From positions 37,640,361 through 37,704,360 of the forward strand of contig OZ035963.1 in assembly GCA_964034945.1 (NCBI GenBank): a stretch of DNA of 64,000 nucleotides, in the 5' to 3' direction. Positions within the stretch are counted from its first letter, which is position 1. Each line of letters opens with the position of its first letter. The stretch comes from Chrysopilus asiliformis (Eukaryota; Arthropoda; Insecta; Diptera; Rhagionidae). The translations under genes and the position numbers were made by a program. Below, one piece after another: positions 20,360-57,232 of the stretch. The notes under the pieces are model-generated. The model searched no databases. It had not been told where the DNA came from and saw only the letters and a program-made list of their open reading frames with translations.

Positions 20360-20798
20360 GATTACTTCATTGCGTTCATGAAAAATGTCGGCCTCCTAAT
20401 TTTGCCTGAAAAACATTTCCCGAACACTCCTGAGTCGATTGGAGCATTATTACAAAAATTTCTGTCATTCTGTGTAAAAGATTTCTCAAAAACTAATAGA
20501 GCTAGAGCTGTTTGATCCTGGTGTTTGGTCCTGTCAATTATGAGTAGAAATCCGTTAACCGGAGGGCACCAAAAAGAATGAATTATTGAGAATAGCATTC
20601 TCCACAATTTTGTGTTTCATTATTATCCGTTATGTTTTACCGTAAAGATATTTTTATTAAAATATGAAAAAAAAAATAGATTTTGCTTGCAAACTAGCAG
20701 TTTTCGAAAAAAACCGTGAAAGGAACAATTAAAGATATTTCAATTCTCTAAAGGTTTTCCTTTTACCGTAAATCGATATCTTTACTGTTATCGAAATA
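20360..20798 (+). repeat. Dispersed repeat family A, longer copy
   Basis: The segment begins with TTCATGAAAAATGTCGGCC, passes through CACTCCTGAGTCGATTGGAG and ends with CTTTACTGTTATCGAAATATT. The same order, reverse-complemented, is found at 27240-27511 joined to 33649-34110, where an LTR retrotransposon has split it. A partial copy is at 9600-9860 and a diverged one at 42525-42660. Confidence 0.75.
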
Positions 20799-23805: not shown

Positions 23806-24210
23806 TTAGGGAGATGTCCCACTGGCGCATCAGCTCCTGCAGCTGACTGATCCCGACATCAGGGGCCTATTCCACAAAAGAACAAGTCTTGTATTTGTAG
23901 CTATTTTTCACAAATTGTAGGACTTGTAAGCACATTTTCATTTCTTAAAATACAATTTTTAAATCACAAATACAAATTCGGAGTAATTTTACAATCCGAA
24001 ATGTTTTCACAAGTCTTTATTTTCTGTTCCTCAACGCATTTCGGCAAGCTTACAATTACAAGTGGTTTTTTTGGGAAATTGTGAGAAAAAATACCACTTG
24101 TAGTCCAATACCGTTCCACAAAGACATTTCTTTGCTGAAATTGAACTACAATTGTTGGAAATATTTAGCAGTGTTCAAACGCCTCTAAAAGTAATCACAA
24201 GTGGATAAAA

Positions 24211-24372
24211 ATGGATACGGACAGTAGTAATAGTAGCGAAAATGAAGCTAATATGCAATTAGCAACTCGTCGCAGAAGAATTTATCGTCCAAGAATAAAT
24301 TTCAATTTAACTTCTGTTTTTGAATTCAACGAAAAATTTCGTTTAAACGCAACAAAAATCAGTCACATTTAA
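24211..24372 (+). CDS. Truncated PIF/Harbinger transposase N-terminus
   Basis: A 53-residue frame starts at an ATG at 24211 and ends at TAA at 24370-24372. It has an acidic Ser/Glu start, a basic RRRR block, then INFNLTSVFEFNEKFRLNAT, which resembles the region just before the catalytic domain in HARBI1-like transposases. The catalytic DDE domain has been deleted, so it cannot act as a transposase. The family call is from reading the sequence and is moderately sure. Confidence 0.45.
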   Translation: MDTDSSNSSENEANMQLATRRRRIYRPRINFNLTSVFEFNEKFRLNATKISHI

Positions 24373-24525
24373 ACTTTGGATAATAGGAGAATCTTTTCCT
24401 ATTATATCCAAAACTAAATGGTCAATTTCATTGAGTTTCATTTCAACACCCCCTCCAAAAAAAATCGTTTTTTTTTCTTTGATTTTAAATAAAATACTTT
24501 TTATAATTTCTTCTTTTTTAGCCAT
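24343..24525 (-). pseudogene. Possible C-terminal remnant of a Harbinger Myb/MADF accessory protein
   Basis: The frame includes a GGG turn followed by MKLNEIDHLVLDIIGKDSP, a pattern like the linker and short C-terminal helix of Harbinger-linked Myb proteins. It overlaps the end of the plus-strand transposase fragment, as expected if the intervening coding parts of two convergent genes were deleted. Low confidence. Confidence 0.25.
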
Positions 24526-24875
24526 AATTTTAATTCTTTACTAAGTGAAATCAAACAACTGTGGCTAAGACTGTCGTAACAATTGTAGAAAAAGAAATCA
24601 ATTCACAAGTGGCCTTAAACTTTTTTGGGGAACAAACAATTGATACAATTGTATAAATCGATATTGTGAAAATGTAAAGAAAAAATATTTACAAATGTGT
24701 GAGTTCCTGGAGCAGTTTTTTTTTGGATTTGTAATTGTGAATATACAATTTAACAATTTGTGAATTGTAGAATTGTACCTTTGTGGAATAGGCCCCTGGT
24801 CACGCAGCTGCACGAACTGATTCGATCAGTCGACATGGCACACTGAACTGGGATCAGCTGACCTCAAACGTCAAA

Positions 24876-25060
24876 ATGTCGGACACGGAGGAAGAACTTC
24901 TCCTTGTTTCTCTGCTAAAAAAACTGAATCTGTGCAATCCTGCAAGCATCTACGTTTTTCTACAACTGGTACGATTGCTGTGTTTAATTTCTCCTCTTCG
25001 ATGGACATCGTATTTATTTTCTCTTGTTCAAAAGTTTATGATGTTCCCAAATAGTAATTA
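24876..25060 (+). pseudogene. Harbinger-like N-terminal fragment in copy 1
   Basis: The frame starts MSDTEEELLLVSLL, the acidic-then-leucine start common to Harbinger transposases, and is cut at 25060 by the CACTGGT element. The same fragment in the uninterrupted copy runs 35235-35405 and ends after 56 residues, so this frame was already truncated before the insertion. Confidence 0.5.
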
Positions 25061-25249
25061 CACTGGTAAACAAAATTGTAACTTTGTTGTGCCACATGGA
25101 CTTTTTGAAGTGAAAACTTCTTTAGCGGCGTTGTGAGTGATTTCAAACTCGATGAAACGACAGTAAAAAGAGATAGGATATTTTAGCCTACGAGAAAATG
25201 AGATAGAATACAGATGGGTGCCAGTCAATTTATCGTAAACAAGATTGAG

Positions 25250-25345
25250 GGGAAGCGGGAAGGGGTACGGGAAGGGGGCGGGGTACGGGAAGGGAAAGGG
25301 GAGAAGGGAGAAGTGTTAGGAGGGAGGAAGTGGAGAGAGGAGGCG
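25250..25345 (+). other. G-rich polypurine tract, potential G-quadruplex
   Basis: Repeated GGGAAGGGG/TACGGG units give more than eight runs of three or more G within about 95 bases, with almost no pyrimidines. Such tracts form G-quadruplexes or triplexes readily. Confidence 0.75.
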
Positions 25346-25526
25346 ATAAATTATGTTTCGTCATAAATTGCAATATATACATATGTACTCGTATATAAAT
25401 AAAAATGGATGTTTTATTGTTTGTCTGCCTGCCTGAGATTACAAAACTCAAAAACTACTGGACCGATTTTTATGCGGTTTTTTGCAAAATAATCTGTGTT
25501 GCCAGGAGCAGGTTTTTAGCTATGTA

Positions 25527-26620
25527 GATTTTCAAAATTCGAAACGGAAGGTCCTGTAAGGATAATGAAAATATCCTTTTTCCCATTTTTCCCCGGAAAA
25601 ATTTGCATTTTAGAGTTTTTGGGGTCGCTGATCACGAATCCGGTATTAGATTTTCAAAATTCGAAACGGAAGGTCCTGTAAGGATAATGAAAATATCCTT
25701 TTTCCCATTTTTCTCCGGAAAAATTGGCACTACGGGGTTTTTGGGGTCGCTGATCACGAATCCGGTATTAGATTTTCAAAATTCGAAACGGAAGGTCCTG
25801 TAAGGATAATGAAAATATCCTTTTTCCCATTTTTCTCCGGAAAAATTGGCACTACGGGGTTTTTGGGGTCGCTGATCACGAATCCGGTATTAGATTTTCA
25901 AAATTCGAAACGAAAGGTCCTGTAAGGATAAATATCCTTTTTCCCATTTTTCCCCGGAAAAATTTGCATTTTAGGGTTTTTGGGGTCGCTGATCACGAAT
26001 CCGGTATTAGATTTTCAAAATTCGAAACGGAAGATCCTGTAAGGATAATGAAAATATCCTTTTTCCCATTTTTCTCCGGAAAAATTGGCACTACGGGGTT
26101 TTTGGGGTCGCTGATCACGAATCCGGTATTAGATTTTCAAAATTCGAAACGAAAGGTCCTGTAAGGATAAATATCCTTTTTCCCATTTTTCCCCGGAAAA
26201 ATTTGCATTTTAGAGTTTTTGGGGTCGCTGATCACGAATCCGGTATTAGATTTTCAAAATTCGAAACGGAAGGTCCTGTAAGGATAATGAAAATATCCTT
26301 TTTCCCATTTTTCTCCGGAAAAATTGGCACTACGGGGTTTTTGGGGTCGCTGATCACGAATCCGGTATTAGATTTTCAAAATTCGAAACGGAAGGTCCTG
26401 TAAGGATAATGAAAATATCCTTTTTCCCATTTTTCTCCGGAAAAATTGGCACTACGGGGTTTTTGGGGTCGCTGATCACGAATCCGGTATTAGATTTTCA
26501 AAATTCGAAACGAAAGGTCCTGTAAGGATAAATATCCTTTTTCCCATTTTTCCCCGGAAAAATTTGCATTTTAGGGTTTTTGGGGTCGCTGATCACGAAT
26601 CCGGTATTAGATTTTCAATA
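25527..26620. repeat. Minisatellite array, 122-bp unit, nine full copies
   Basis: Units start with GATTTTCAAAATTCGAAACG at 25527, 25649, 25771, 25893, 26010, 26132, 26249, 26371 and 26493, with a last partial unit at 26610. Three units are 117 bp because five bases are missing after AAGGATAA. Variant units (TTTGCATTTTAG versus TTGGCACTACGGGG) recur in the same order: units 2-3-4 equal units 7-8-9, so a 361-bp block was duplicated. The identical 66-residue frames in it are repeat by-products. Diverged single units lie at about 41346-41485 and 63085-63180. Confidence 0.95.
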
Positions 26621-26938
26621 AAAATATAATATTACTTTTGAACCTGGTACCAATATTATAATAAATAAACGCTATAACTATCCCACCCCTGATACCGCAT
26701 TCGTCTCATTCTCTCGCTGTTTAGTTTTCCTAAGGTTTCACTTCTACCGCGTGTGCACTGCACACACATGTTTTTTTTTTGATATTTTTTACTTTAGTAG
26801 GTGGTTGGCAGTAAAAACAAACATTTAAAAAAAATCGGTTAGCCAAGAATTTTATTTTCTTAAGTAATTTAAAATATTTCAAAAAACAATGATCTCCTAA
26901 ACCAAAAATGTAAAAAAAAATTATTATGAAGTTACGAT

Positions 26939-27140
26939 CTAAGATTTTCTAGCAAATTTAGCTCCTGGTTGGTCCCTTTTGATTGTCCAGCAGTAATCTG
27001 CCAACATATTTGGGTTCCATTTGCCCTGGTAACGTTTTTCCATCTTAGAAATGTCCTGATGGAACCTTTCTCCGTGCTCATCGTTCATAGCCCCCAAATT
27101 CTCAAGAAAAAAATCAGTTGTGGTCAACACAAAACTTTCT
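26939..27140 (-). pseudogene. C-terminal part of an arthropod transposon-type protein
   Basis: The minus frame reads ENLGAMNDEHGERFHQDIS and then MEKRYQGKWNPNMLADYCW before stopping at 26939. I recognise this as the C-terminal block of an abundant uncharacterised protein family in arthropod and cnidarian genomes. The upstream residues that should precede it lie at 34150-34313 and have been separated by a repeat and an LTR retrotransposon. The conserved E within GERFH could be a catalytic acid of a DDE-type enzyme, which is only a suggestion. Confidence 0.6.
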
Positions 27141-27239
27141 TCTACAAAATCTACGACCCTGTGCAATTTACGCTAGAGCCCTGTCGCGTTGTCAACCTAA
27201 GACGACCTCCCAATAAATTCTTGGTTCATCCAAAAATAT

Positions 27240-27511
27240 CAAAAACGTACAAAATTTGAGATAACTTGAGAACGGTAAAAGATATCAATTTACGGTAAAT
27301 GGCAAAAATGTAGAAAATGTTAACATCTTTAATTATTCTTTTAACTGATTTGTCGAAAAACCGTTAGTTTGCAAATTATTCGCAAAAATATGATTTTTTA
27401 CATATTAATGAAAATATCTCAATAACGGTAAAAGATAACGGATAACGGTAAAAGACAAAATTGTGCAGAATGCCATTCTCATTAATTCACTTCATACATT
27501 CAGTCAGCAAA
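27240..27511 (-). repeat. Dispersed repeat family A, part 1 of a split copy
   Basis: Reverse complement of the 20565-20800 segment. It continues on the far side of the LTR retrotransposon at 33649-34110. Confidence 0.75.
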
Positions 27512-27515
27512 AACC

Positions 27516-27700
27516 TGTAGGATTATGATTTATTTTTATTATTTAAACACATTTATTTATTTTTTTTAAAAGTTTTAATAAAATTTAAAAGTTGTTGATT
27601 CGACGGTTGACAATCATATAATAAAAATTTAAAATTACAAAACGGTTACACTTACTAGATTAAAAGGTAACTTAAATAATAATTTTACAGTGTCGCCACA
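27516..27700 (-). repeat. 3' LTR of element 2 (185 bp)
   Basis: Matches 33455-33648 throughout except for lacking the 9-bp AATAAAAAC present there after ACGGTTACAC. It has TG...CA ends and is followed on the plus strand by the polypurine tract complement GTACTCCCTCCCC (27701-27713). Confidence 0.95.
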
Positions 27701-27716
27701 GTACTCCCTCCCCAGT
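27701..27716 (-). other. Polypurine tract of element 2
   Basis: The minus strand reads CTGGGGAGGGAGTAC immediately before the 3' LTR, the position and composition used to prime plus-strand DNA synthesis. Confidence 0.8.
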
Positions 27717-27768
27717 GAAAATTAAAGAAATCAATAACTAAAATTTTGTTTCTTTAACCGGAACGAGA

Positions 27769-30700
27769 TTAGGAAGAAAACCGAACTTTGAAAGATGAAT
27801 GTTTTGGCAAGTTAATATTAGGACGAATGGGAATAGTATTGGAAATAGCACCTGTTACTGGTTCGTCTAAGTCATAAATTCTATCCGAAAAACAAGGTTT
27901 AAGTCTGTCAATTGAAACCGTAACATTTTTGTTTTTAATATTTAACAAAAAATATTTATTATTTCTTTCTAAAACAGCATATGGCCCTGAATACGGTGTT
28001 TGTAAGGAAGATCGTACAGCATCTGTCCTTAAAAACACATGAGAACAAGAATTTAAATCTTTAAAAACAAAAATTGATTTCCTTGAATGATCCGTAGATG
28101 AAACCGGTCGAATGTTAACAAATTGTTCACGTAATTTATTTATAAAATGATTTTGAAATTCAACTTTGGGTGAAGAATTAAGAAAATCACTAGGTAAACG
28201 AATATTTTCTCCATAAACTAATTCAGCTGAAGAACTTTGAAAATCTTCCCTATAAGTAGTTCGTAATCCTAAAAGAACTGCGGGTAATGATCTAGTCCAA
28301 GAACTACTTTCGCTATGACACATAATAGCAGATTTAAGAGTTCTATGGAATCGTTCTATTAAGCCATTCGCTTTTGGATTGTATGCAGTAGTACGATTTC
28401 GTTTAAAGCCTAATAATTTAGAAAGTTCTCTAAATAATTCTGATTCGAATTGTGTACCATGGTCTGTAACGATAGTATTTGGAACACCAAATCTACATAT
28501 CCAGTCTCTAAAAATAACGTTAGCCACAGTTTCACTAGAAATATCTTTGATGGGTATGACTTCGGGCCAACGGGTAAAACGATCCATAATAGTAACACAA
28601 TAACGAAAACCTTCTGACGATGGTAAAGGACCTACAATGTCTACATGAATGTGTTGAAAACGTTCACTTACTAAAGGAAATTTTCCAGTCTCGCTTTTAA
28701 CATGTCGAGAAATTTTTGATTTTTGACACGCTAAACAATTTTTAGACCAATCTCGAATATCTTTATTAATAGAAGGCCAAATAAATTTTTGAGATGCCAT
28801 TTTTATCGTAGTTCGAATGCTAGGGTGCGATAAATTATGTATATTTTGAAAAATTGAATTTCTGAAATTTTGTGGAATATAAGGTCTAATTACTCCAGAA
28901 GAATTATCACACCAAATAAATTTATCAGAACCTAATACAGGAAATTTTGCCAAATTTAGAGAAGTATTGCCGTCTAAAAGAGATGTAAGTTCTGTATCTC
29001 CATTCTGAGCATCTGCAATTAAAGCAAAATCAACTGACTCAGGAATATTAATAGAGTCTACACGTGATAAAGTATCGGCTACGACATTATCTTTGCCTGG
29101 AATGTGCTGAATGTCTGTAGTGAATTGACCGATAAAATCAAGATGACGAACTTGACGAGGAGAAGCCTTCTCTAAATTTTGATGAAAAGCATAAATCAAT
29201 GGTTTGTGATCCGTAAAAAGTGTAAATTCGCGACCTTCTAATATAAATCTAAAGTGTTTAATAGCCGAATAAGTAGCTAAAAGCTCTCTGTCGTAGGCAC
29301 TATAACGTTGTTGTGCCGTATTTAATTTAACCGAAAAGAAACTTAGTGGACACCAATTTCCGTCTATAAATTGTTGGACAACAGCTCCAAGAGATTTATC
29401 AGAAGCATCTACCATCACAGATAATTTTGCAGTTGATGAAGGATAGACAAGCAAAGTAGCTTTAGAAAGCTTTTCTTTGCAAAGATCAAATGCATTTATG
29501 GTTAGTTCGGTCCAATCAATTTTTCTACGATCATTTTTCTTGCTACCTTCGAGAAATTTGTTAAGGTTTAATTGATCTTGTGCAGCATTTGGAATGAACC
29601 GTCTATAAAAATTGATCATACCCAAGAATCGTCTAAGATCTTTGACTGTCTCTGGACGAGTAAAATCACAAATTGCTTTAATTCGATCAGCTATTGGAAG
29701 AATACCTTTTGGCGAAATGAGATGTCCGAGAAAATGTATTTCTTTTTGCAAAAACAGACTTTTTTCAATATTAACAATTAAGCCATATTCAAAAAAACGT
29801 TTGAAAATTTGTTCTAAATGATGAAAATGTTCTTCTTCATTATGAGAAAATACTAAAACATCATCAATATAAACATAACAAAAATTAAAGTCTTTTAAAA
29901 CATGATTTATAAAACGTTGAAAAGTTTGGGCAGCATTTCTGAAACCAAAAGTCATTCTGACAAATTCAAATAAGCCGAAAGGAGTACATATTGCTGTTTT
30001 CTTAATATCATCTGGATGAACAGGAATTTGATGGTATGCTTTAACTAAATCTAAAGAAGAGAAAACTGAACAACCTGCTAACTGAGCAGAAAAATCCTGT
30101 AAATAGCTAATAGGATAACGATCAGGAACAGTAATACTATTAAGTTTGCGATAGTCGCCGCAAGGTCTCCAGTCACCATTTTTTTTCTTCACTAAATGCA
30201 GTGGAGAAGACCATTCGCTTTTTGAAGGACGACAAATACCTTGTTCCAACAAATATTCGAATTCTAATTTAGCAGCCTGTAATTTTTCAGGTGATAATCG
30301 ACGTACTTTAGAATTTATTGGAGGACCTTTAGTTTCGATGTGATGAACAACTTCATGTTTAACATCTTTCGAAAAATTATTTGGATCTGTAATGGACTTA
30401 AATTTGTTCAAAAGTGATGAAATTCTAGGGTCTAATATTTTATCAGAAATAGTGGAAATTGAAGATGATGGACCAGAAACTAATTTTGCATTAACATTTA
30501 AGTTAGTTAACGGATCTATTAATTTCTTTCTACGAATATCAACTAATAATCCAAAATTATTTAAAAAATCTGCACCGATAATTGGTTTGGAAACATCAGC
30601 AATAATGAATGAATGCAAAAATTTTCTTCTTAGGCCCAAATTCAACGTAATTAATTTTGTACCATAAGTATTAATTTTGGTTGAATTAGCAGCAAAAAGT

Positions 30701-30783
30701 TTAAAATTTGATATGCATTTTTTATCGAAACGACAAGAAGGAATAACCGAAACTTCGGCACCACTATCTATCAAAAAATGCAT
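27769..30783 (-). CDS. pol: Pol polyprotein of element 2 (interrupted at its N-terminus)
   Basis: This 1004-residue frame contains an aspartic protease ([10 protein letters not shown], Asp 6 from the first Met), reverse transcriptase (YVYIDD near residues 303-308), RNase H (MVDAS; TDHKPL), an integrase zinc module (HNLSHPS ... CLACQ near 645-690) and the integrase core ([22 protein letters not shown]). All catalytic motifs are present without stops. The Met at 30783 is unlikely to be the native start: the frame continues upstream to a hAT insertion at 30801 and resumes beyond it at 31933, in register after removing element plus duplication (1140 nt). Native expression was by -1 frameshift from gag. 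The hAT therefore falls inside the protease-proximal coding region. Confidence 0.92.
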
Positions 30784-30800
30784 TTTACTTAAGTCATCAT

Positions 30801-31932
30801 TAGGGCCCGGATTTAAGGCACTTATAAAATGGGAAAAAAGGCAGGCAAAAAGGCAGTATAAAAGACTGAATAAGCATTAATTTTTCAAAAAAAAGGCATT
30901 TATTTAAACAAAAGGCATTTTCATTGCACGAATATTACATATCATGTATCACAAAATTGAACGCAGGACGCTTGCAAAAAATTTCAGATAAATTAAATTA
31001 ATATAAATAAATTTAAAAAAATATATAAAAAGCTAATAGCCGTATAAAGAGTCTCACTTCATTTAAGTAATATGAGTGTTCGCTGCTTTTTACCTACAAC
31101 TTGTTATAGTGACGTTACTTTAGGTGCATATCATAATAGGTAATACGGATCTAATACTGATTGCAAGAAATAATTAAGTGAAGTAATAAAACTTACCTAA
31201 AAGTTCTTTTCTAATCCCCGAAATTGTTTCTAAATAGCAGGTTTCCAATTCTTTCGTAACGTTGATTCATCTGGAATTTTTTCATGGCAATATTTTTGAA
31301 AAAACTCTCAAAATATAATTATTCAATTTCCAAAGTGGATTATTTGCTTTAACAAATGCCATACATAAATCTCTAAAAAATTATGAGTCGCTTCTTCTGC
31401 TGATTGCATTTTTGAATAACCCGACTTTTTTTGAACTTGCTTTCTGCAATAAATTCTTGTGTATGGCAATTTTTATGTGTTGTGTCACAAAATACTTTTT
31501 TGAATGATTCACTACTTTTTCGCAAATTTTGCAGAAAAGCAAACTCCCGTCTGTCGAGAAACAGTCTTTACCAAATGTATTTACAAGGTTCACGAGTATA
31601 AGGCGGTTTTCTCGTGTGATTTTTGGCATTTCTAAGATTTCAATTTACTACCAAAACTAAACTGATCGCACATTGGCGCAACTGACATAAATATAGGCAT
31701 TGCCAAATCAAAAAAAAAATAATGATAATTTTTATGGGTACTTAAATTACCCTAAAAAGAATTTATAAATCTTTTTAAGATCGGAATTATTAAAAAAGGC
31801 ATAAAAAAAAGGCTAAATGGTCGAAAAAGTGGGAAAATAAGCAAAAATGCCTAAAAGGCAGTTATTATACAAAAATGAACGAAAAAAGCAAAATAGGCAA
31901 AATGCCTTTTTGCCTTAAATATCCGGGCCCTG
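30801..31932 (-). mobile_element. hAT-type DNA transposon (non-autonomous) inserted in element 2
   Basis: Terminal inverted repeats (TAGGGCCCGGAT...TTAAGGCA on the left, its near complement on the right) bound 1132 bp. An exact 8-bp duplication GTCATCAT lies at 30793-30800 and 31933-31940. An 8-bp duplication with CAGGG-type ends is the hAT signature. Subterminal AAAAGGCA/TGCCTTTT motifs recur near both ends. The only coding remnant is a BED-like zinc finger frame, so it needs a transposase from another copy. Confidence 0.9.
31381..31629 (-). CDS. BED-type zinc finger fragment of a hAT transposase
   Basis: An 82-residue frame contains LFCKICEKVV and, 14 residues after the second Cys, TQHIKIAIHK, giving a C-x2-C...H-x5-H spacing like a BED finger, the DNA-binding module at the N-terminus of many hAT transposases. 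The catalytic and dimerisation regions are missing. It starts MPKITRENRLILVNLVNTFG, which resembles the N-terminus of intact transposases of this type, so this may be the true start and the rest was deleted. Confidence 0.6.
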   Translation of the reverse strand: MPKITRENRLILVNLVNTFGKDCFSTDGSLLFCKICEKVVNHSKKYFVTQHIKIAIHKNLLQKASSKKVGLFKNAISRRSDS

Positions 31933-32000
31933 GTCATCATAAAGAAAAAGACGACAACTTTTAATGGTTGCATCGTCTGTCGTCATCAACGATGAACCAT

Positions 32001-32897
32001 TTAGTTTCCCGAACTGTCGTTCGTGTAATTACAGGGAGAAATGCATTTTTTAGCTTTTTCCCCAAAATTAAAATGATACCAGCACAATGATTTTGATTTA
32101 TCAGAAGAACTAGAAGACCGATTACGTGATTTATTGTTTTGTTTGTTAACACTGCGACTTCGAGAACGAGAGTTATTATTAGAAGATTCAAATTTCAATT
32201 TTTTAATTTCTTCTGTTAAATTTTGAATTTGATCATTTAAAGAAGACAAAATGTTAACGTTATTAACTGATGATTGAGACAAATTTACAGAACAAATACT
32301 ATTTCCAATATAAACTGAAACAATTCTGTCAGCAATTTCAGCTAGAGAATCTAGTGAATCTCTGCTTACTGACAGAATTGCTTGTACTGTTTGTGGTAGA
32401 CGCTCCATCCACAATGATTTTAAAACGTTTTCCGTAATAGAATTGGCCGACAAACCTTTCATCTGTCTAAGAAGATCAGATGGTTTTTTATCACCCAATT
32501 CTAATTCCTTCAAAATTTTTTTTAATCGAACCTCTTCCGAATCTGTAAGGCGATTAATAAGTGCTTCTTTTAAAGCAATGTATTTGTTGTCAGCTGGAGG
32601 ATTTAACAAAATGTCACTAACAAAATCTAAAATTTCCTCCTCCAATGCTGCAACTACAATATTAAATTTTGTGTTATCCGAAATAATATGACTATTCACA
32701 AATTGGGCTTCAAGTTGTATGAACCATAGTTGTGGTTTATTACGCCAAAATTTTGGTGGTCGAACACTGACTGCACCAATTTGTGAAAACTGAGGTTGAT
32801 TAATACCGGATGAATCACTACCTGGGAGAGATACTGAAGGCGTTACATTTTCTTGAGCCATAATAAAATTTAATAATGAAAATAATAGTAAACACAA
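32001..32897 (-). CDS. gag: Gag protein of element 2, CHCC type
   Basis: A 298-residue frame. The Met at residue 13 (32861, MAQENVTPSVSLPG) is the more likely start because the 12 residues before it are hydrophobic and atypical. A capsid-like region (FWRNKPQLWFIQLEAQF through LWMERLPQTVQAIL) is followed by a Ser/Arg-rich linker (SRSRSRSVNKQ) and a zinc motif CWYHFNFGEKAKKCISPC, spaced C-x2-H-x9-C-x3-C. This CHCC form instead of CCHC is the hallmark of CsRn1-lineage elements. The stop at 32001-32003 directly follows a GGGAAAC heptamer. Confidence 0.85.
   Translation of the reverse strand: MCLLLFSLLNFIMAQENVTPSVSLPGSDSSGINQPQFSQIGAVSVRPPKFWRNKPQLWFIQLEAQFVNSHIISDNTKFNIVVAALEEEILDFVSDILLNPPADNKYIALKEALINRLTDSEEVRLKKILKELELGDKKPSDLLRQMKGLSANSITENVLKSLWMERLPQTVQAILSVSRDSLDSLAEIADRIVSVYIGNSICSVNLSQSSVNNVNILSSLNDQIQNLTEEIKKLKFESSNNNSRSRSRSVNKQNNKSRNRSSSSSDKSKSLCWYHFNFGEKAKKCISPCNYTNDSSGN
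32004..32010 (-). promoter_or_regulatory. Candidate -1 ribosomal frameshift site GGGAAAC
   Basis: In the gag frame the heptamer sits as G GGA AAC immediately before the TAA stop, the canonical X XXY YYZ arrangement. A -1 slip there enters the pol frame, which is open from this point to the hAT insertion and, beyond it, through pol. Confidence 0.7.
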
Positions 32898-33437
32898 AAT
32901 TATGTATGAAAAAGTTTGAATGTGTAATATTATATGTTAAAATGTTGATTAAAATTAAATTAAACAAGAATAATAATGAAAAATCAAATCCCTACTTGAA
33001 ATTATGATGTAATAAAAAGTCTTGATTTTTTCTTTTTAAATTGATGAGAATCCTTAAAGAATCTTCTTCAAAGAGGTACAAAAATTAACCAAGTCTTGTT
33101 AAATAGATACAGAAAACTTGATAGTAGTCTCAAAGACTCGGCTTGAATAAACAAGATAATGAACTGAGCTTCTTTGAATCCGTTTTGAGAAGAAGTCTTG
33201 AAAAATTCGGCTTAATTGAAAAATTAAATTTCGTCCTGTTTTGAAGAAAAGTATTTTTCTTGAATGAAGTTTTGAAAAATTACTTCCATAAAAATGTTGA
33301 ATGTTGTATTTTCATTTTCGTTCTCTAAAATTCTTTTGGCTTCTTCTTTTGATTTTTTTAAAATATTGATGATTGTGGAATTTTCGTCTTCTTTTTCAAA
33401 TTTCTGTTTTTTAAATTCTTACGATGTTCTTTTTCCT

Positions 33438-33451
33438 TGTCGGGGTCACCA
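33438..33451 (-). other. Primer binding site of element 2 (tRNA-Trp type)
   Basis: The minus strand reads TGGTGACCCCGACA three bases after the 5' LTR end. TGG pairs with a tRNA CCA tail, and the following bases fit tRNA-Trp, the primer of CsRn1/Kabuki elements. The tRNA match is from memory of the family. Confidence 0.7.
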
Positions 33452-33454
33452 AAT

Positions 33455-33648
33455 TGTAGGATTATGATTTATTTTTATTATTTAAACACATTTATTTATT
33501 TTTTTTAAAAGTTTTAATAAAATTTAAAAGTTGTTGATTCGACGGTTGACAATCATATAATAAAAATTTAAAATTACAAAACGGTTACACAATAAAAACT
33601 TACTAGATTAAAAGGTAACTTAAATAATAATTTTACAGTGTCGCCACA
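33455..33648 (-). repeat. 5' LTR of element 2 (194 bp)
   Basis: Same sequence as 27516-27700 plus the 9-bp AATAAAAAC. TG...CA ends, next to the AACC target duplication at 33649-33652. Confidence 0.95.
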
Positions 33649-34110
33649 AACCCGTTAGTTTTCGAGATAATCGCAAAAAACTGTTTTTTTGGAAATAACG
33701 GTTTATCTCGATAACAGGTTGAGATATCGAGTTATAGCTAAAGACAAAAGTGTGGGAAATTTTATTTTCTCCAAGTTTTGTCATACTTAAGGCCACTAAA
33801 AAACGCGTAGTTTGGGAGTAAATCGAGAAAAACGAAATTGCGATTTTTGAAAAACCGCCATTTTGGATACTTCCGGTTAACGGATTTCCACCAGGATCGT
33901 CCCATTTCAGGACCCAACATGTCTATAAAATTTCATGGCGCTAGCTCTATTAGTTTTTGAGAAATCTTGTACACAGACTGACAGACTGACAGACAGACTG
34001 ACAGACTGACAGACAGAAAGACATTTTTTTAATATGACTCCAATCGACTCAGGAGTGATCGGGAAATGTTTTTTAGGCAAAATTAAGAGGTCGAAATTTT
34101 TCATGAATAC
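33649..34110 (-). repeat. Dispersed repeat family A, part 2, with an ACAGACTG microsatellite
   Basis: It continues the repeat interrupted at 27511 and ends with the complement of the 20360-20450 sequence (GACTCCAATCGACTCAGGAG, then TTCATGAATACAAT). At about 33970-34018 is a short ACAGACTG tandem run. The flanks at about 27150 and 34125 carry CTTTCTTCTAC/GTAGAAGAAAG in opposite orientations, possibly the ends of this repeat as an element. Confidence 0.7.
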
Positions 34111-34538
34111 AATACTTTATTATACTCCGTAGAAGAAAGTAAAAATCCAGGTGTGAGTCTAAAAAATGAATCTTGAGTGACATGTTGCAACCCAATGCTT
34201 GATAAGCTAACAATCGCTAACCAACTTTCTGTAGCTCTCACTCTTATGATTACCAAAAAATTTGCAACAACATTCTTAAAAGATTTCCATGCTGGTTTTT
34301 CTAAATCGCTCAAATTTTCTTCGAATACCGAATCTTATATTAACTCCCTGATTTGAGGTCCTACGAAAATACCCTCTTTTATCTTTTTATCACTTTGGTA
34401 TTGGTATTTTGCAAAACCAAAATACCGGTGATAACTCTGCAAGACTAGATTTGTGAAATTTCGTCTTTGTTTTTTGAAGCTCTGTTCACCACAAACTTCA
34501 CAAAAAGAGTTAGGATTGTTACTACACTTTATCGACAT
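34102..34538 (-). pseudogene. N-terminal and middle remnants of the transposon-type protein in the CACTGGT element
   Basis: The frame from 34538 begins MSIKCSNNPNSFCEVCGEQ, a two-Cys-pair zinc finger start that I associate with the same arthropod protein family as the fragment at 26939-27140. After a large internal deletion, 34313 onward reads LEKPAWKSFKNVVANFL, then shifts frame and ends with LKIHFLDSHLDF in another frame. The next residues of the family are found at 27125, beyond the inserted repeat. Broken by deletion, frameshift and insertion; not functional. Confidence 0.6.
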
Positions 34539-35103
34539 GTTAACGTTAATAAATCACAATATTTTGATGAAATCACAGACAAATAGTTTTATGACTATTT
34601 CTTCGCGAACGGTCGTTTGCTTTTATTACCGTAGTACTAGTTATATTACCGTATCACAAGAAAACTGAAGCTAATTGAAACAAAAGAATTGCAGTTTAAT
34701 AATCAGGGTACTTAGTTAAAATAGTATTAGCTAACAAAGTTCGTGTGGCATGACCAGTGTTGACCAGTGTTATTTTAAAGTCAACATTATATGAAGTAGA
34801 GAGCCTATAACCTAGAGAGTGGCCAATAGATTGTGCTACTGACAACAATTATTACCGCCAGGCGAAAAAAATATTAAAAATTATTATTTTATTGTATTTA
34901 ATCTAACAAAAATGACATTAGAAACTACCCTACATGTTCCTGATATCAGCTACATTTAGGTCAGTTCAAAAAAGTCAGCTTTGTGTCCCAGACATGCAGC
35001 TGCACATTTTTTGCAGTGTGCCATGCGCCATTGGATTACATGTGCAACTGATATCGGGATCAGTAAGCTGCAGCAGCTGATGGCCAGTGGGATATCTCGC
35101 TTA

Positions 35104-35783
35104 GGGAGATGTCCCACTGGCGCATCAGCTCCTGCAGCTGACTGATCCCGACATCAGGTCGCGCAGCTGCAAGAACTGATTCGATCAGTTGACATGACAC
35201 ACTGAACTGGGATCAGCTTACCTCAAACGTCAAAATGTCGGACTCGGAGGAAGAACTTCTCCTTATTTCTCTGCTAAAAAAACTGAATCTGTGCAATCCT
35301 ACAAGCATCTACCTTTTCCTACAGCTTGTACGATTGCTGTGTTTAATTTCTCCTATTCGATGGACATCGTATCTATTTTCGCTTGTTCAAAAGTTTATTA
35401 CTTAAACAGACTTGTCAAAATTTTATGATGTTCCCAACTAGTAATTATTTTAAAGTCAACATTATATGAAGTAGAGAGCCTATAACCTAGAGAGTCGCCA
35501 TGCTACCTTTATAGACTGCCACTCATGACAATTATTACCGCCAGACGAAAAAAATATTGAAAATTATCATTCTATTGTATTTAATCTAACAAAAATGACA
35601 TTAGAAACTACCCGACATGTTCCTGATATCAGCTACATTTAGGTCGGTTCAAAAAAGTCAGCTTTGTGTCCCAGACATGCAGCTGCACATTTTTTGCAGT
35701 ATGCCATGCGCCATTGGATTACATGTGCAACTGATATCGGGATCAGTCAGCTGCAGCAGCTGATGGCCAGTGGGACATCTCGC
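35104..35783. mobile_element. PIF/Harbinger-type element, copy 2, uninterrupted
   Basis: It has the same ends as copy 1 (GGGAGATGTCCCACTGGC.. and ..GGCCAGTGGGACATCTCGC), inverted over about 50 bp, with TTA at 35101-35103 and 35784-35786. The first TTA is also the right-hand duplication of copy 1, so the two copies sit head to tail with no spacer. At 680 bp it is non-autonomous. Confidence 0.88.
35235..35405 (+). pseudogene. Harbinger-like N-terminal fragment in copy 2
   Basis: A 56-residue frame begins MSDSEEELLLISLL, an acidic-leucine start seen in Harbinger transposases, and stops at 35403-35405. No catalytic domain follows. Confidence 0.5.
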
Positions 35784-35946
35784 TTAGAGTACAAGTCTCC
35801 AATTTACTGATTATGACAATTTTTAAGATTAAAAATCGGAAATGTTAAAAAAAATCCTTTATTATTGATGGGAATGGTTTGTGCTAAGGTTTTGTAAATT
35901 TTCAAATATTTTTATTATTTTCAATGACAAAAAAATTATTTTAATA

Positions 35947-46305: not shown

Positions 46306-47474
46306 TGATCATGGCTGCGTTCATAATTGCAGAAATCTAACGCAGTACTGCGCAAAAGTCAGCTGCGCGCAGAAAGTCTGCGGTGCAGCAGACTTTTGGA
46401 CTGCTTTAGCTGCTGCAGTCCGTTCATAACCTGCTTGGCTGAGTAAAGAAAGAAATAGAGAATCTGACAGCTAAGATTTTCTATTGACAGTTTTCGTTTT
46501 TGATAGTTCTGTACACGAATATTTTCATTGTCTCCAATAAAATGAGCAATCCAATGTTATTTAATTTGTTTTTGAATTCAATTCTCGATTGTATACAAAC
46601 TCCGAAATCAACTGTATTAAAGGCTTTTCGTATTTTGGAGTAGAAAAGAAAACGCCGTCGTTTTTTGCTAAGTCGAGTGATCAGACGCAATATTACACAA
46701 TATTATGTTTTATACGTGACAAGCAAATTACCAAACAACCATGCAGGATTCGACGATTTTTATGCCCCCGGGCTAACTTTTGAAACAGTTCGGGTTTCAC
46801 TTTCGTAGTACATCCATTGGAAAGGTATCCTTTCAAAGGTACCCGAACTGGTTCAGAAATTAGCCCGGGGGCATAAAAATCGTCGAAAAATGCATAAGAT
46901 GGCAGCTGACCACCCCTCTGCAGTTCCCCGCCAAAAAAGAGCTTATGTCCATGAAACTAGAGCAAAATACATTTCTAATGCTGGTACAACCAAAGTGAAA
47001 TCCAAAAGTTAGTCAAGGGGCATTTTCGTGCATCGTTCTTTCTTTTTGACATCATCTTGTGAGAACGGAAAATCGGCCTTAATTTCTGTAATATTACGTA
47101 GAACCATTTTCCACAAAGCAGATTTCTTTCGCTCCCCGGAATTGAACATTCGCTCTAATTTGAGCATTCGCTCCACTTTTTGTCATCCCGCAACTCATTA
47201 AAACTCAAAATTTTAATGTAATTTTTCACATTTTATTAATGTTATTTACGAGTACTTAGATCTCGCTATCGCTGTCCGCCATTATTTCACAAATGTTACA
47301 TTCTGCGGCGTTATCGTCAGCTAAATTTCTTTACTGCGCTTGCTGCGCAGTTGCTGCCGAAAATTTTCTGCAGGCTGCTTTCATGAACGTACTGCACACT
47401 GCGCAGATATGATGATGAACGGGCTGCTTTAGTACTGCGTTAGATCTGCAATTATGAACGCAGCCCATGTATTT
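46306..47474. mobile_element. DNA element with GGCTGCGTTCATAATTGCAG ends
   Basis: The left end (GGCTGCGTTCATAATTGCAG, then ATCTAACGCAGTACTG) is repeated inverted at the right end (..CAGTACTAAAGCAGCCC nearby and ..CTGCAATTATGAACGCAGCC). CAT lies on both outer flanks and might be a 3-bp duplication. The interior has no recognisable transposase and includes a smaller nested MITE. Superfamily not assigned. Confidence 0.6.
46749..46887. mobile_element. Nested MITE with CCCCCGGGCTAA inverted repeats
   Basis: TTCGACGATTTTTATGCCCC is followed by CGGGCTAA at the left and its exact complement at the right, giving about 28-bp inverted repeats. A second inner pair, CAGTTCGGGT/ACCCGAACTG, allows the whole 139 bp to fold. 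Confidence 0.75.
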
Positions 47475-48145
47475 GCTTGTTTGATTGGATTAAGTGTATC
47501 TCATCGCCGTAATCGTTTATTGTTGGTAGATCACTGTCATTTGTATGAGTCCGTCTTCTCTTGCGAGAGCTTTTCTCATCGTCAAGAAGAGAGCAGTATA
47601 TCGCAGAGATATCGTCCGTGTCACGTTTAATGTTGTAAGTGTTTTCGGTGTATATGTGAAGAGCTTCATCTGCCAGCCGTTTTTTGAAGTTTTTTTTTGT
47701 GTGGATAGTATTTTTGTTTTTTCAAAATCAGGTGAATGGCCATGAGTGTTAAAATATTTTTAATTTAATTGTAAAACTACATTTTAATTTTTATAACTGA
47801 CAAAATAGAACTGTATACTTATATACTCTTATACCACACCTCATAGCTAACGGACATTTGAATAAACTTATTCAAGTATTTCTGAAATTTGTCAGCAAAA
47901 CGTTTAAATCAGACGTGGGCAAGAGAAAATTAAAACGGGCCAAACATATACCAACAAGCCAAAATAGACTTCAGAAAATCGAGTACACTGTGAGAAAATG
48001 TCTTTAAACAGGCATTTTAAATTTCTTAGCAAAAAATATATTTTTATATCATTTAGTCAAAAGCCCTCTTACCGCGTCAAGGTAGATATAATAAAGAAGG
48101 TTTGCTAACCTATCTAAAGGTTATCTAGCCTATATATATATATAC
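47475..48145. other. Flank of the errantivirus, AT-rich, ending in a TA repeat
   Basis: No gene recognised. The segment ends in TATATATATATAC, the target into which the following element inserted. Confidence 0.45.
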
Positions 48146-48559
48146 AATTAACTTTTTTATTTACTTTTAATGAAAAAAATATATTTTTTATAGTGGACGT
48201 CACTTGTCCACTTTTCAATAAAACACCAATTACTTTTTAATATTTTATTGAGAGCCTGAGGCTACAGAGTTAGAATTGTGGTGAAACAGATTCTGGAACT
48301 AAAGATAATCTCTTATGCTAGGGCTATTTATACCTTTAGATAAGCCATGAAATAGTTTACAATAATAATCTTTAAAATAAGATGTTTCATCCCATGATTC
48401 AATGATTTGTTATATTTTAGGTGATATATTCCATTTGTTTAATCAGGTGTCATTGAATCATTGTCTGATTTCATCATTCTGAATGTTCTTAGTATCTAAC
48501 TTAATGAATCATTGGCTTTTTACCGTTCTTTAATTTTCATATAAATTTTATGCTTAACT
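48146..48559 (-). repeat. 3' LTR of element 3 (414 bp)
   Basis: Reads identical to 55505-55918. It contains a TATA-like CTATTTATA complement at 48324-48332 and an AATAAA polyadenylation-signal complement near 48243-48248. Confidence 0.95.
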
Positions 48560-48571
48560 CTTCCCTCCTGA
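48560..48571 (-). other. Polypurine tract of element 3
   Basis: The minus strand reads AGGAGGGAAG directly before the 3' LTR, the expected plus-strand primer. Confidence 0.8.
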
Positions 48572-48599
48572 AGACTTTTTGTCCTCAAAAAGATTAATT

Positions 48600-50016
48600 T
48601 TAATTTCCTGATGAAAGATTTTCCAACTCAAATTCTACTGAGGGTTTTGGAATAAAATTTATGATTTTGGTTTTTTTCATTTTCCTTAACCAAATTACAA
48701 TTATTACAATAATTATTAATATGATTAAATACAATATAATGTCATTTGTTATGGAATGTATATTTGTTTGATTTAATTTCTCAATTTGTTTCATATTTTC
48801 CATATGTAATTTATCTACATTTATTTTGACATATGATTCTGTAAGATTGGTTTGGAACATTGGTGGTAAGGGTTGGTAATTTCTAATTTCTTTTGACATA
48901 AATCTTTGGTTATTAAGTTCTATTGAACAGTTTTCTATTTGAATTAAAAAACTTCCTTTTAATGTTTTTGTTTGATTCTCGCATTCGATAAAAAGATTAC
49001 CTTCGTAATTATCAATGAATATCAAATTTTCATTAATTTCTTCAATTATTATATTAATGTTGTATTTATTAGTGCAATTTGCATTGATACCCGCTATTAA
49101 CTTGGGAATGCAAGATTCTCTTGAAAGATTTATTAAATCATTGTTTTTGCATATTGAAACATCCTGAAATGTGCTACATTTTTGACGTATAGCGTAATAA
49201 TTTCCGTTATTAACTAAAAAGTTATCGTATTCCAAATCAATTTGTTTTTTATTATTAGTAATAGATTTTAAGACTAAGTGGTCATATTCTTGTTTTTCTG
49301 TCATTGGAATGACTATTATGTAGAGAATTACGTATTCTTTAATTGCTACATACGGGGTTGCAAAATTTAGAGCTTCCGCTTCATTGTTATAGGGTAGGGT
49401 TTGTGTAACTTTGATTATTTGTTCCAACTCTTTCCTATCTAGGATCTTTGTATTAATTATTCCCTTTTTTGCCCAATGTATTGAATCCGTGATTTGGTCT
49501 ATTTCATGTTTCATTATTAATAATTTGTTAAAAATGTTCTGTGCTAGGTCTGCGTGAAGTATTTCATTGTAATTTTTTAGTATTTTATTAGAGACGTCAA
49601 AAATTCTTTTGTTGATTATAATTTGCTGTTTATTGTTCTCTATGAGTTGATTTTGTGTGGTCAGGATTGTTTCAAGATCATTGGCATCAGGTGATCCTGC
49701 GATCCATTTCCAAGCCGATCCTATCCAATTGATAGATCTTTTTATTTTGTGTGGCTTGAGTTCTTGTAATTGGGTTTCTATGTTATACTGGAGGTGTCTA
49801 ATTTGGGGTATTAAAGGAGAGGAATCGTTAATTTTGGAATTAACGACTGCAATTATGGTTTCATGAGCTTGGATATAATCTGTAAGATTGATGATGTGAA
49901 TTATTTTGAAGTTTCCTTCTGTAATTCGTCCCGGTCCCACTTTAATTGTGGCGAGGGGTGTGTTGGTATATTCAAATATTTTGATATTAGCGTTGGCCAA
50001 CCAAAAGGTGGCAAAC
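48600..50016 (-). CDS. env: Env glycoprotein of element 3 (main exon)
   Basis: This exon encodes a class-I-type fusion glycoprotein related to gypsy Env and baculovirus F proteins (family inference). A basic cleavage motif (KIKR, codon ending at 49737) separates a short N-terminal subunit from a long membrane subunit that starts SINWIGSAWKWIAG, the likely fusion peptide region. Heptad-like helices follow, then a Cys-bearing ectodomain with several N-x-S/T glycosylation sites. One membrane anchor (IILYLIILIIIVIIVIWL) and a basic cytoplasmic tail end the protein. The frame has no ATG near its beginning: it opens directly at a strong splice acceptor (TTATTTTCAG, intron ends 50017). The start codon is expected from a spliced upstream exon at 54949-54968. 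No stop or shift interrupts it; length is normal. Confidence 0.88.
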
Positions 50017-50064
50017 CTGAAAATAAGGATCTATTGTGAGAAAATGGGATTAGTTTATAGAGAA

Positions 50065-53000
50065 CTAGTCATTTTTAATGTTTGTTTTGTGGATTCGTTT
50101 ACCACTAAATGTTGTGACAGTGACTCTATGGTTGTCTTTGACAATTTCTTTAACGAATTTTTGCTTTAATTTCCCTTTCCTTCCAGGGGCTTTTACATAA
50201 ATTATATCTCCAGTATTGTAATTTTTTGGGTCTTTACGTTTTTTGTTTTCATAATTTAATCGCTGTTGTTGAATTCTCTCAATCAAATGTTTTGTTTTTA
50301 TGTTTGCTTGTTCACGGGCAGTGGTAAGTTCTTCTAATGTTTTCGATGGGTGTCTACCATAAAATATGGTAGCCGGAGTCTCCTTTATAACACTATGAAT
50401 GGAATTATTGTAGCGATCGGTAGCTATTATTGCTAATTCGGTTATTGGTTTGTTTGTATATTCTTTTTGTAGACAACGAATAATTTCTTGAATAGTAGAA
50501 TGTACCCTTTCTACTTGGCCGTTAACTTCACTTCTGGATGATGGTGTCAAATAAATTTCTATTCCTAGATTATCTAAAAATTCTGTAATTATCGGAGTAG
50601 TTAAAGCTTTGTCCCTATCCATGACTAATAATCTGGGAGTTGTATAGTAATGTATCAATTCAAAAATTTTACTTTTTAGATGTAATGCTGACTTATTTTC
50701 GATTGGAAATATTTTAGAGAATTTTGAAAATTTGTCTATTGATGTTAGGAATAATTGTCCATCCAATTCCATTATATCGATGTGGACAATTTCTGTTGGA
50801 TATTGTGGAATAGGGGTAGATTGGAGTTTGTTGTTTGTGGGGTGTCTGTCATACTTGCTTTCTTTGCAAATGTTACAGTTCTTGATAATTTCTTTAATTC
50901 TTGCTGTCATCTGAGGGAAATAATATTGCAATATGATTTTTTCCTTGTTCTCTTTTGATGCTCTGTGTGCTGATCTATGTTCCTTCAGGACAATTTCCAA
51001 TAGTTGCTCTTCATCAATTACATCCGTTACAATTTTTTGTGTAAATCTGATTTTAAGATTTTGTCCAAAATGTTCTCTATATGTTTGTTGAATTAGGTGC
51101 ATTATATGTTCAGGAGCTTTTAGTCCATTTAAGACATCTGATCTCATTTCTGTCTTTAATATTTCTTTTATTATTTCTTCTGTAAAACAGTTTTTGGTTA
51201 TTGTTTTCCTATGGTATCCTGGATGTGGTAATTCATAAGTACGACCTTCCACACTTCCTTCTAAAAGTATTACTTGATTTTTGAACACGTTGATAGGAGA
51301 TTCTGTACTTATGATTAGGTCGGTGGCATCCTCATCTGCACTGTGTTGTGTTGTGGTTGAAGTATTACATTCACTGATGTTCATTCTAGAGAGGGCATCT
51401 GCGACTGTATTTGTTTTGCCTGGTTTGTAAATCATTTCATGATTGTACTCTTCAAGTCTAGATTTCCATCGCTTTAATTTGGCGTTATTGTTTTTGTTGC
51501 TAAGGGCATAAGTTAGGGGTTGATGGTCTGTGATGATTCTTATTTTTTTCGCACCGTATAGGTAGTTCCGTAGATTCTCAAGAGACCAAATAATGGCTAA
51601 CATTTCCTTTTCGTTCGTAGCATAGTTTTGTTCCGTGGAGTTCAGACTCCTAGAGATGTAAGTGATTGGTTTGTCTTTACCAATTTCTCCTTGCGAAAGA
51701 ACTGCACCTATGGCGTAATTGGATGCATCTGTCGTTAATAAGAATGGTTGTTCAAAATCTGGGAAAATTAATAAGTCTGAAGAAGTCAATTGGTTTTTTA
51801 ATAGATTGAAGGCTTCTCTTTCTTCTTCATTCAATTTGATTGTTAATTTTTTAGATTGATTCTTCTTTATGCGAGATAATTCTCCACCAGTCAGTTTTGT
51901 CAATGGTTTAGCTATCTTGGCGAAATCCTTTATAAATCTTCTATAATAGGAAGCAAATCCTAAGAATGATTTGAGTTCTTTTAAGTTTGCAGGTTCGATT
52001 GTATTGTTTATTGCTTGGATTTTCTTCGGGTCTGCTTTTATTCCTTTATTAGAAATTATGAAGCCAAGAAATTCCGTTTCTTGTTTAAAGAATTCTGTTT
52101 TGTCCAAATTAACCTTTAAATTCGCATGAAGTAATTTTGAAAAGATTTCCCTTATGTCATTAAAATGTTGTTCCATTGTTTTACTAAAGATGATTATGTC
52201 ATCTATGTAAACATAACACTGTTTCCCAATATTTTCCTTTAAAACGTCGTCAATCATTCGTTGAAAAATTGCTGGTGCATTTTTCAGGCCAAAAGGAAGT
52301 CTCAGGAATTCATACTTCCCATTTAGTGTCGAAAATGCAGTTTTTTCGATATCTCCTTCCTTCATCCGTATTTGATGAAAGCCAGACGTCAGGTCGATGG
52401 TAGTGAAATATTTGGCTTCTCCAAGATTCGCCAATGTGCTGGAGATATCCGGTATTGGGTATTTGTCTGCTATTGTAACTTCGTTTAGTTTTTTATAATC
52501 AATTACCATTCTAAATTTTTTTTCTCCACTTGAATCTAATTTTTTTGGTACTATCCAAATTGGGGCGTTGTAGGGAGATTTTGAAGGTCTGATAACATTT
52601 TCTTCGAGAAGTTTCTTGATTTGTTTATTCACTTCCTCCCTCATATTGACTGGATAAGGGTAAGTTTTGGCATAAATTGGAATGTCGGTAGTCGTCCTTA
52701 CTTCCGCTCTTACATTGGTAACTATTGTTATTTTATCATTAGGTTGAGAAAATATGGGGTTGTATTCGCTGATTATATTATTTAGTTTTTCTTTCTGGTC
52801 CTTTGAAAGATGATCAATTCTAATATCGAGATGATTGACATCCGTTGATTGTTTCATTAGTAGTGGTATTTCAACACCTGGGTATATTTTTATTATAGAC
52901 TTTCCTCTGTCTATAACGGCTTCCAGTTGTCTTAATGTATCATCACCGATTATTCCGTCGAAGGTTTTCAAGGATGGTAGTAAAAAGAATTTCACTGGAA

Positions 53001-57228: not shown

Positions 57229-57232
57229 TTAA

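What the first reader, a model, noticed from the sequence alone, without database searches (positions are those of the whole stretch)
23809..35100. Deep nest of transposons: Harbinger, CACTGGT element, repeat A, CsRn1 retrotransposon, hAT
Each level can be peeled off. The hAT leaves an 8-bp duplication; the LTR element leaves AACC; repeat A is contiguous again and matches 20360-20798; the CACTGGT element leaves TTA with an empty site visible in copy 2; and the Harbinger has its own TTA. A second Harbinger-type element interrupts the outermost copy independently. This gives a relative order of activity for five families in one locus.
Basis: seen in the sequence. Interest (0 to 1): 0.85.

Follow-up and report, generated by a model that had tools for sequence, protein, structure and literature searches.

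The report
Transposons nested five levels deep
A stretch of animal DNA holds mobile elements that jumped one inside another five levels deep, so the order in which these copies landed can be read off; each kind of element is already known, so it is a clean example rather than a surprise.

Summary
The nest is real. The chain is: PIF/Harbinger-type TWA element (copy 1, 23809-35100) > Chapaev3-type CACTGGT element (25061-34769) > repeat A (27113-34142) > CsRn1 LTR retrotransposon (27516-33648) > hAT deletion derivative (30801-31932). Uninterrupted copies close the sites: 9 of 9 for both inserts in the outer element, 3 of 3 for the LTR element in repeat A, and 4 of 4 copies that hold the site for the hAT. 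The composite junctions CsRn1/hAT and Chapaev/outer matched end to end only here among 40 scored places each.

Corrections: repeat A is HINE-like (Helentron type) and about 160 bp longer than stated; it closes against copies outside the window, not against 20360-20798. A truncated Helitron with a 122-bp array (about 25389-26618) was missed. The second "Harbinger" may be of the CWG-target NuwaI group.

Sequence clocks agree with the order at three levels: outer copy 1 (21 private substitutions in 643), HINE (about 0-0.6%), CsRn1 LTRs (0 of 185). Nesting orders these copies, not the activity of families. Three junction queries did not complete and no reads were available. Well documented, ordinary in kind.

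The parts
23809..35100 (+). Outer PIF/Harbinger-type element, copy 1, interrupted; TTA at 23806-23808 and 35101-35103
   Evidence: joined around its two inserts it aligns along copy 2 with 615 matches, 31 mismatches, 53 gap columns
35104..35783 (+). Outer element, copy 2, head to tail with copy 1; TTA at 35784-35786
   Evidence: 40 other near-full-length places at 95-96% among 40 scored of 897 candidates
23863..24795 (.). Second TIR element (NuwaI-like), TIR GGGCCTATTCCACAAA; flanks CAG 23860-23862 and CTG 24796-24798
   Evidence: site uninterrupted in 9 of 9 outer copies
25061..34769 (-). Chapaev3-type element with TTA at 25058-25060 and 34770-34772; transposase remains on the minus strand
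   Evidence: empty site in 9 of 9 outer copies; 24 relatives at 87-97%
34150..34553 (-). N-terminal side of the Chapaev transposase remains (C(2)C motif, frameshifted)
26942..27112 (-). C-terminal side of the Chapaev transposase remains (H(4)H motif HGERFH)
25389..26618 (+). Helitron-derived piece with a nine-unit array of about 122 bp (25525-26618), 3' end missing; left limit approximate
   Evidence: related copy upstream of the window with TC...CTAG ends
27113..34142 (-). Repeat A, a HINE-like (Helentron-type) element, interrupted by the LTR element
   Evidence: Three copies share its ends and are uninterrupted at the LTR site; subterminal repeats and stem in 4 of 4 copies
27516..33648 (-). 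CsRn1-type LTR retrotransposon; LTRs 27516-27700 and 33455-33648; AACC at 27512-27515 and 33649-33652
   Evidence: target shown once in 3 of 3 HINE copies
27769..30783 (-). pol reading frame of the CsRn1-type element (1004 codons open)
32001..32897 (-). gag reading frame of the CsRn1-type element
   Evidence: DUF7041
30801..31932 (.). hAT deletion derivative with GTCATCAT at 30793-30800 and 31933-31940
   Evidence: empty site in 4 of 4 copies that hold it; 10 of 10 examined relatives have 8-bp duplications

Best explanation
A five-level stack of ordinary, independent insertions. Shown: a Harbinger-type element lies at a TTA site; a Chapaev3-type element entered a TTA inside it; a HINE-like element lies in a T-run within the remains of the Chapaev transposase; a CsRn1 retrotransposon integrated in that HINE with a 4-bp AACC duplication; a hAT derivative sits in the pol gene of that retrotransposon with an 8-bp duplication. 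Side events: a NuwaI-like element entered the outer copy; a second outer-family copy lies at the right TTA of the first; a truncated Helitron lies in the Chapaev element. Inferred: each layer landed here on its own rather than arriving inside its host as cargo; the HINE moved by rolling-circle transposition; the Helitron piece entered by insertion; copy 2 is younger than copy 1.
For: Empty sites: 9 of 9 outer copies at both sites, 3 of 3 HINE copies, 4 of 4 CsRn1 copies that hold the site, out of 6 fetched. Junction queries matched end to end only here among 40 scored places for CsRn1/hAT and for Chapaev/outer. Family targets: outer TWA identical on both sides in 10 of 11 solitary copies; hAT 8 bp in 10 of 10 examined of 39 found; CsRn1 4 bp in 3 of 5. 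Clock: 21 private substitutions in 643 for outer copy 1, about 0-0.6% for the HINE (hand calculation), 0 of 185 for the LTRs.
Against: The HINE/Chapaev, LTR/HINE and NuwaI/outer junctions were not tested genome-wide (queries unanswered). There is no uninterrupted Chapaev copy read across the HINE site or the Helitron piece. One of five CsRn1 pairs showed no 4-bp duplication and one could not be judged; one of 11 outer copies has TAA/TTA; one of 10 Chapaev right ends lacks TWA plus T. The outer copies used for the clock were chosen among the best matches to copy 2. No reads.
Confidence: 0.93

Rival explanations
1. Some layers arrived together: an inner element was already inside its host element when the host moved here, so the nest records fewer than five events at this place.
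For: Cargo transport is possible in principle, and three junctions could not be tested.
Against: CsRn1/hAT and Chapaev/outer junctions match end to end only here among 40 scored places each; 4 of 4 CsRn1 copies holding the site lack the hAT. A single parent copy since lost or not assembled is not excluded.
Confidence: 0.08
2. The two outer copies are a local tandem duplication, not a second insertion into the TTA of the first.
For: Head-to-tail copies with one TTA between them; first 58 bases from the TTA on identical; they are slightly closer to each other (4.8%) than copy 1 is to most of the 8 others (4.8-6.8%).
Against: Only 1 of 643 columns has a state shared by these two alone, no more than other pairs; copy 1 has 21 private changes against 7 in copy 2, p = 0.0125; another dimer on C2 is tail to tail with TAA at all three positions, which duplication does not give.
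Confidence: 0.1
3. One or more junctions are false joins of the assembly.
For: Repeats are where assemblies fail, and no reads were available.
Against: Target duplications with matching empty sites in unlinked copies are not expected from false joins; chance odds are about 3e-5 for an 8-bp match and 0.006 for a 4-bp match.
Confidence: 0.02

Closest known systems
PIF/Harbinger and NuwaI groups of the PHIS superfamily (PMC4482050, passages and section 7)
   Same: Outer element: TWA target, TIR starting with G. Second element: TIR starting with GGG and a CWG target in the empty sites.
   Different: Both are short and no transposase was sought or shown; the second has CAG on one side and CTG on the other.
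Chapaev3 (CMC group; PMC4079192, passages)
   Same: CAC...GTG ends, TWA target with A before and T after, C(2)C and H(4)H motifs in the transposase remains.
   Different: Frameshifted, middle of the transposase missing; 3' tip doubled (GACCAGTGTTGACCAGTG).
HINE / DINE-1, non-autonomous Helentrons (PMC4067079 and PMC7492417, passages)
   Same: 12-bp subterminal inverted repeats, 3' stem-loop, GTCT-type microsatellite, T-rich target.
   Different: 3' subterminal repeat about 22 nt from the end, not 38-60 nt as in the mite families; no autonomous partner sought.
CsRn1 lineage of Ty3/gypsy elements (PMC3630058, passages)
   Same: Short LTRs, CHCC gag motif, GPY motif, 4-bp duplication.
   Different: This copy is interrupted by a hAT and has a 9-bp deletion in one LTR.
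hAT superfamily (family features recalled)
   Same: 8-bp duplications, short inverted ends.
   Different: Deletion derivative; 87-codon open stretch without a significant Pfam match.
Nested clusters resolved by REANNOTATE (PMC2672092, passages)
   Same: Order of insertion read from containment; LTR pair bounds the ages of layers inside and outside.
   Different: Here the order is also checked with unlinked empty sites and private substitutions.

Membership tests
PIF/Harbinger (outer element) | 3-bp TWA target duplication | tested here: met
   Window copies TTA; other solitary copies 10 of 11 identical TWA on both sides, one TAA/TTA
PIF/Harbinger (outer element) | TIR starting with A or G, mostly under 60 bp | tested here: met
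   Starts GGGAGATG / GCGAGATG; arms of 22 and 35 nt at 91-94%
PIF/Harbinger (outer element) | DDE transposase and Myb/SANT protein of the autonomous partner | not tested
   No search was made for an autonomous partner
NuwaI (element 23863-24795) | CWG target duplication | tested here: inconclusive
   CAG left, CTG right; 9 of 9 empty sites read CAG; no other copy examined (queries unanswered)
NuwaI (element 23863-24795) | TIR starting with GGG | tested here: met
   GGGCCTATTCC at both ends
Chapaev3 | CAC...GTG ends | tested here: met
   CACTGGT...ACCAGTG; right end shared by 10 of 10 aligned relatives
Chapaev3 | TWA duplication with A before and T after | tested here: met
   Window A-TTA...TTA-T; right side of relatives 9 of 10 TWA plus T, L097 does not; left sides of relatives not examined
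Chapaev3 | Transposase motifs C(2)C, LH, H(4)H | tested here: inconclusive
   C(2)C (FCEVCGE) and H(4)H (HGERFH) read in the remains; LH not identified, middle part missing; no Pfam support
HINE (Helentron-associated) | Subterminal inverted repeats of at least 11 bp | tested here: met
   12 bp, 4 of 4 copies
HINE (Helentron-associated) | Stem-loop near the 3' end and a microsatellite | tested here: met
   TTGTG/CACAA stem in 4 of 4 copies; GTCT-type tract
HINE (Helentron-associated) | T-rich target without duplication | tested here: inconclusive
   T-runs on both sides in the copies aligned, but no empty site of this family was read
HINE (Helentron-associated) | 3' subterminal repeat 38-60 bp from the end (mite families) | tested here: not met
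   About 22 nt; described in the paper for mite families, so I treat it as a family-level measure
CsRn1 | 4-bp target duplication | tested here: met
   Window AACC; other copies 3 of 5, one without, one not judged
CsRn1 | CHCC gag motif and GPY motif in integrase | tested here: met
   CWYHFNFGEKAKKCISPC in gag, SGPYAVLE in pol
CsRn1 | Primer site complementary to tRNA-Trp | tested here: inconclusive
   TGGTGACCCCGAC follows the 5' LTR on the minus strand; the match to tRNA-Trp is recalled, no tRNA gene was compared
hAT | 8-bp target duplication | tested here: met
   Window GTCATCAT; 10 of 10 examined, of 39 relatives found
hAT | hAT transposase | tested here: inconclusive
   Only an 87-codon open stretch; best Pfam matches E 0.12 and above, below cut-offs
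Helitron (fragment 25389-26618) | 5'-TC...CTRR-3' between A and T | tested here: inconclusive
   Seen in one related copy upstream of the window; the window's piece lacks the 3' end

The most novel reading that the evidence does not exclude
PHIS-type elements in this genome re-use their own target: the outer family forms dimers in more than one orientation with a single TWA at the joint. Their target copies sometimes end with opposite middle bases (CAG/CTG at 23860/24796; TAA/TTA at L048/L049), which would point to a target cut in which the central W is not simply copied to both sides.
Probability: 0.08. Interest if true: 0.5.

Novelty: new member of a known kind. Interest (0 to 1): 0.28.

Why it matters
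It is a well documented stack: most layers have a target duplication, or an empty site in unlinked copies, or both, and sequence divergence at three levels agrees with the nesting order. That makes it a useful calibration locus for relative dating in this genome. It also shows what a sequence-only reading gets right and where it errs: true ends of repeats, a truncated layer, and taking copy order for family order. The principle that a complete LTR pair bounds the ages of what lies inside and outside it is standard (PMC2672092, passages).

Tried and rejected
Repeat A closing against 20360-20798: rejected, the alignment stops at the LTR site; other copies close it. A 7-bp target duplication for repeat A: considered and dropped, because letters next to its left end are shared by 4 copies at different sites. 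CAGGGG...CCCCTG as a hAT-type TIR for the 23863 element: dropped, no 8-bp duplication in the window and 9 of 9 empty sites have CAG once. Local duplication for the tandem copies: disfavoured. Pfam on short transposase pieces gave no match above cut-off. A protein search with pol found 4965 relatives among 7969 scored candidates and did not identify the species. Paper searches for an interruption matrix, Harbinger MITE tandems, MITE dimers and nesting in insects gave general sources only.
Full report
What the window is. The species was not identified; by its elements it is an animal, probably an arthropod (inference).

The outer element. Copy 1 runs from 23809 to 35100 with TTA at both ends; copy 2 (35104-35783) follows head to tail and shares the middle TTA. 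Joined around its two inserts, copy 1 aligns along copy 2 with 615 matches, 31 mismatches and 53 gap columns. A genome search with copy 2 gave 897 candidates, 40 scored; besides copy 2 itself, 40 near-full-length places at 95-96% are listed. Of 11 solitary copies with both flanks read (8, 3 more in the alignment), 10 have the same TWA on both sides; one has TAA and TTA. A tail-to-tail dimer on C2 has TAA at all three positions. Target and ends fit PIF/Harbinger (PMC4482050, passages). No transposase was sought.

Two inserts in copy 1. Copy 2 and 8 further copies are uninterrupted at both sites, 9 of 9. At the first site a 933-bp element with TIR GGGCCTATTCCACAAA sits between CAG and CTG, where the 9 paralogs read CAG once. 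CWG duplications and GGG ends mark the NuwaI group of the same superfamily (PMC4482050, section 7); the differing middle base leaves this open. At the second site the CACTGGT element (25061-34769) lies between two TTA, with A before and T after, the rule reported for Chapaev3 (PMC4079192, passages). Its transposase remains show the C(2)C and H(4)H motifs of that superfamily; they are frameshifted, the middle part is missing and the LH motif was not identified. A junction query at its right end (34350-35000; 664 candidates, 40 scored) matched end to end only here; it found 24 Chapaev relatives at 87-97% without the outer flank and 15 other outer places without the Chapaev element, besides copy 2 and two extra pieces. 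Of 10 right ends of relatives aligned, 9 have TWA followed by T and one (L097) does not; two of the ten (L090, L091) share a flank.

Inside the Chapaev element. Repeat A is larger than reported. Three copies in the 100 kb downstream of the window share ends equivalent to 27113 and 34142. On the minus strand it has 12-bp subterminal inverted repeats and a 3' stem, both in 4 of 4 copies, a GTCT-type microsatellite and T-runs at its borders. These are features of HINE/DINE-1 elements, non-autonomous Helentrons (PMC4067079, passages; PMC7492417, passages). One measure departs from the mite families: the 3' repeat lies about 22 nt, not 38-60 nt, from the end. The Chapaev transposase remains read SHLD(F) on one side and FLENLGAMNDEHGERFHQD on the other, so the HINE appears to have split that frame. 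With its left flank it matches a copy upstream of the window that has TC...CTAG ends between A and T, as Helitrons do (rule in PMC4067079, passages). The window's piece lacks the 3' end. Whether it inserted or was captured is open.

Inside repeat A. The LTR element is flanked by AACC; the three HINE copies read CAGCAAAAACCCGTTAG with AACC once. The LTRs show 0 substitutions in 185 bases and one 9-bp gap; the other four LTR pairs compared carry that stretch, so the gap is a deletion in this copy. By the rule of three 0 of 185 allows up to about 1.6% divergence. Of five other copies examined, three have matching 4-bp flanks, one does not and one could not be judged. Four other LTR pairs differ by 0/193, 0/193, 2/194 and 0/181, so the family moved recently. 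Gag has a CHCC knuckle and pol a GPY motif, marks of the CsRn1 lineage (PMC3630058, passages). The tRNA-Trp primer site is recalled, not tested.

Inside the LTR element. The hAT (30801-31932) lies between two copies of GTCATCAT beside the protease start of pol. Of six fetched CsRn1 stretches four hold the site and are uninterrupted there; two match neither flank. A 300-base query across the junction (214 candidates, 40 scored) matched end to end only here; the other 39 are hAT copies elsewhere at 94-100%. Ten of these 39 were examined and all ten have perfect 8-bp duplications of the pattern nTnATnAY. The T at the left tip is shared by those ten.

Do the clocks agree? In 643 ungapped columns outer copy 1 has 21 private substitutions, copy 2 has 7 and eight other copies have 6, 2, 3, 4, 3, 1, 10 and 6 (two-sided binomial for 21 against 7, p = 0.0125). 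The eight were taken from the best matches to copy 2, which may favour a low count for copy 2. The HINE copy has three-point branches of 0.6, -0.05 and 0.25%, worked out by hand; the LTRs have 0 of 185. The order outer > HINE > CsRn1 thus agrees with nesting; no such measure was made for Chapaev, the NuwaI-like element or the Helitron piece. Copies 1 and 2 share one private state in 643 columns, no more than other pairs, so a recent local duplication is unlikely.

What the nest says. It orders these insertions. It does not order the families. Resolving nests and bounding ages with LTR pairs is established practice (PMC2672092, passages; PMC5657132, listing with start of abstract). Tandem dimers of mobile elements are described in general (PMC9659126, passages).

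Limits. No reads were available. Three junction queries did not complete. Copy counts are lower bounds, since 40 candidates are scored per search.

Noticed in passing
window 48145-55918: Another LTR element with two identical 415-bp direct repeats 7.4 kb apart, an env-like frame at 48600-50000 (-) matching Pfam Gypsy protein PF07253 (E 8.7e-54) and a pol frame at 50065-53094 (-). Described only.
   Followed up: partly
window 770-5910: Overlapping gag-like and pol frames of a further LTR retrotransposon on the plus strand.
   Followed up: partly
L054-L056 (genome C2:47338900-47340345): A tail-to-tail dimer of the outer element with TAA at both outer flanks and at the joint.
   Followed up: partly
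L048/L049; window 23860-23862 and 24796-24798: Target copies with opposite middle bases: TAA/TTA in one outer copy and CAG/CTG around the NuwaI-like element.
   Followed up: no
window coordinates 136787-137278, about 73 kb beyond the window's end (in L037): A HINE copy whose ACAG-type microsatellite has grown to roughly 490 bp, against 51 bp in the window copy.
   Followed up: no
window 34751-34769: The Chapaev-type element ends in a doubled tip, GACCAGTG TTGACCAGTG; the outer tip is the same in 11 of 11 aligned copies and the inner one exact in 9 of 11.
   Followed up: no
window 56998-57232, 46741-46895 and 12827-12940/56673-56786: Two near-palindromic stretches and a 95.6% inverted repeat pair, probably further foldback or TIR elements.
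   Followed up: no
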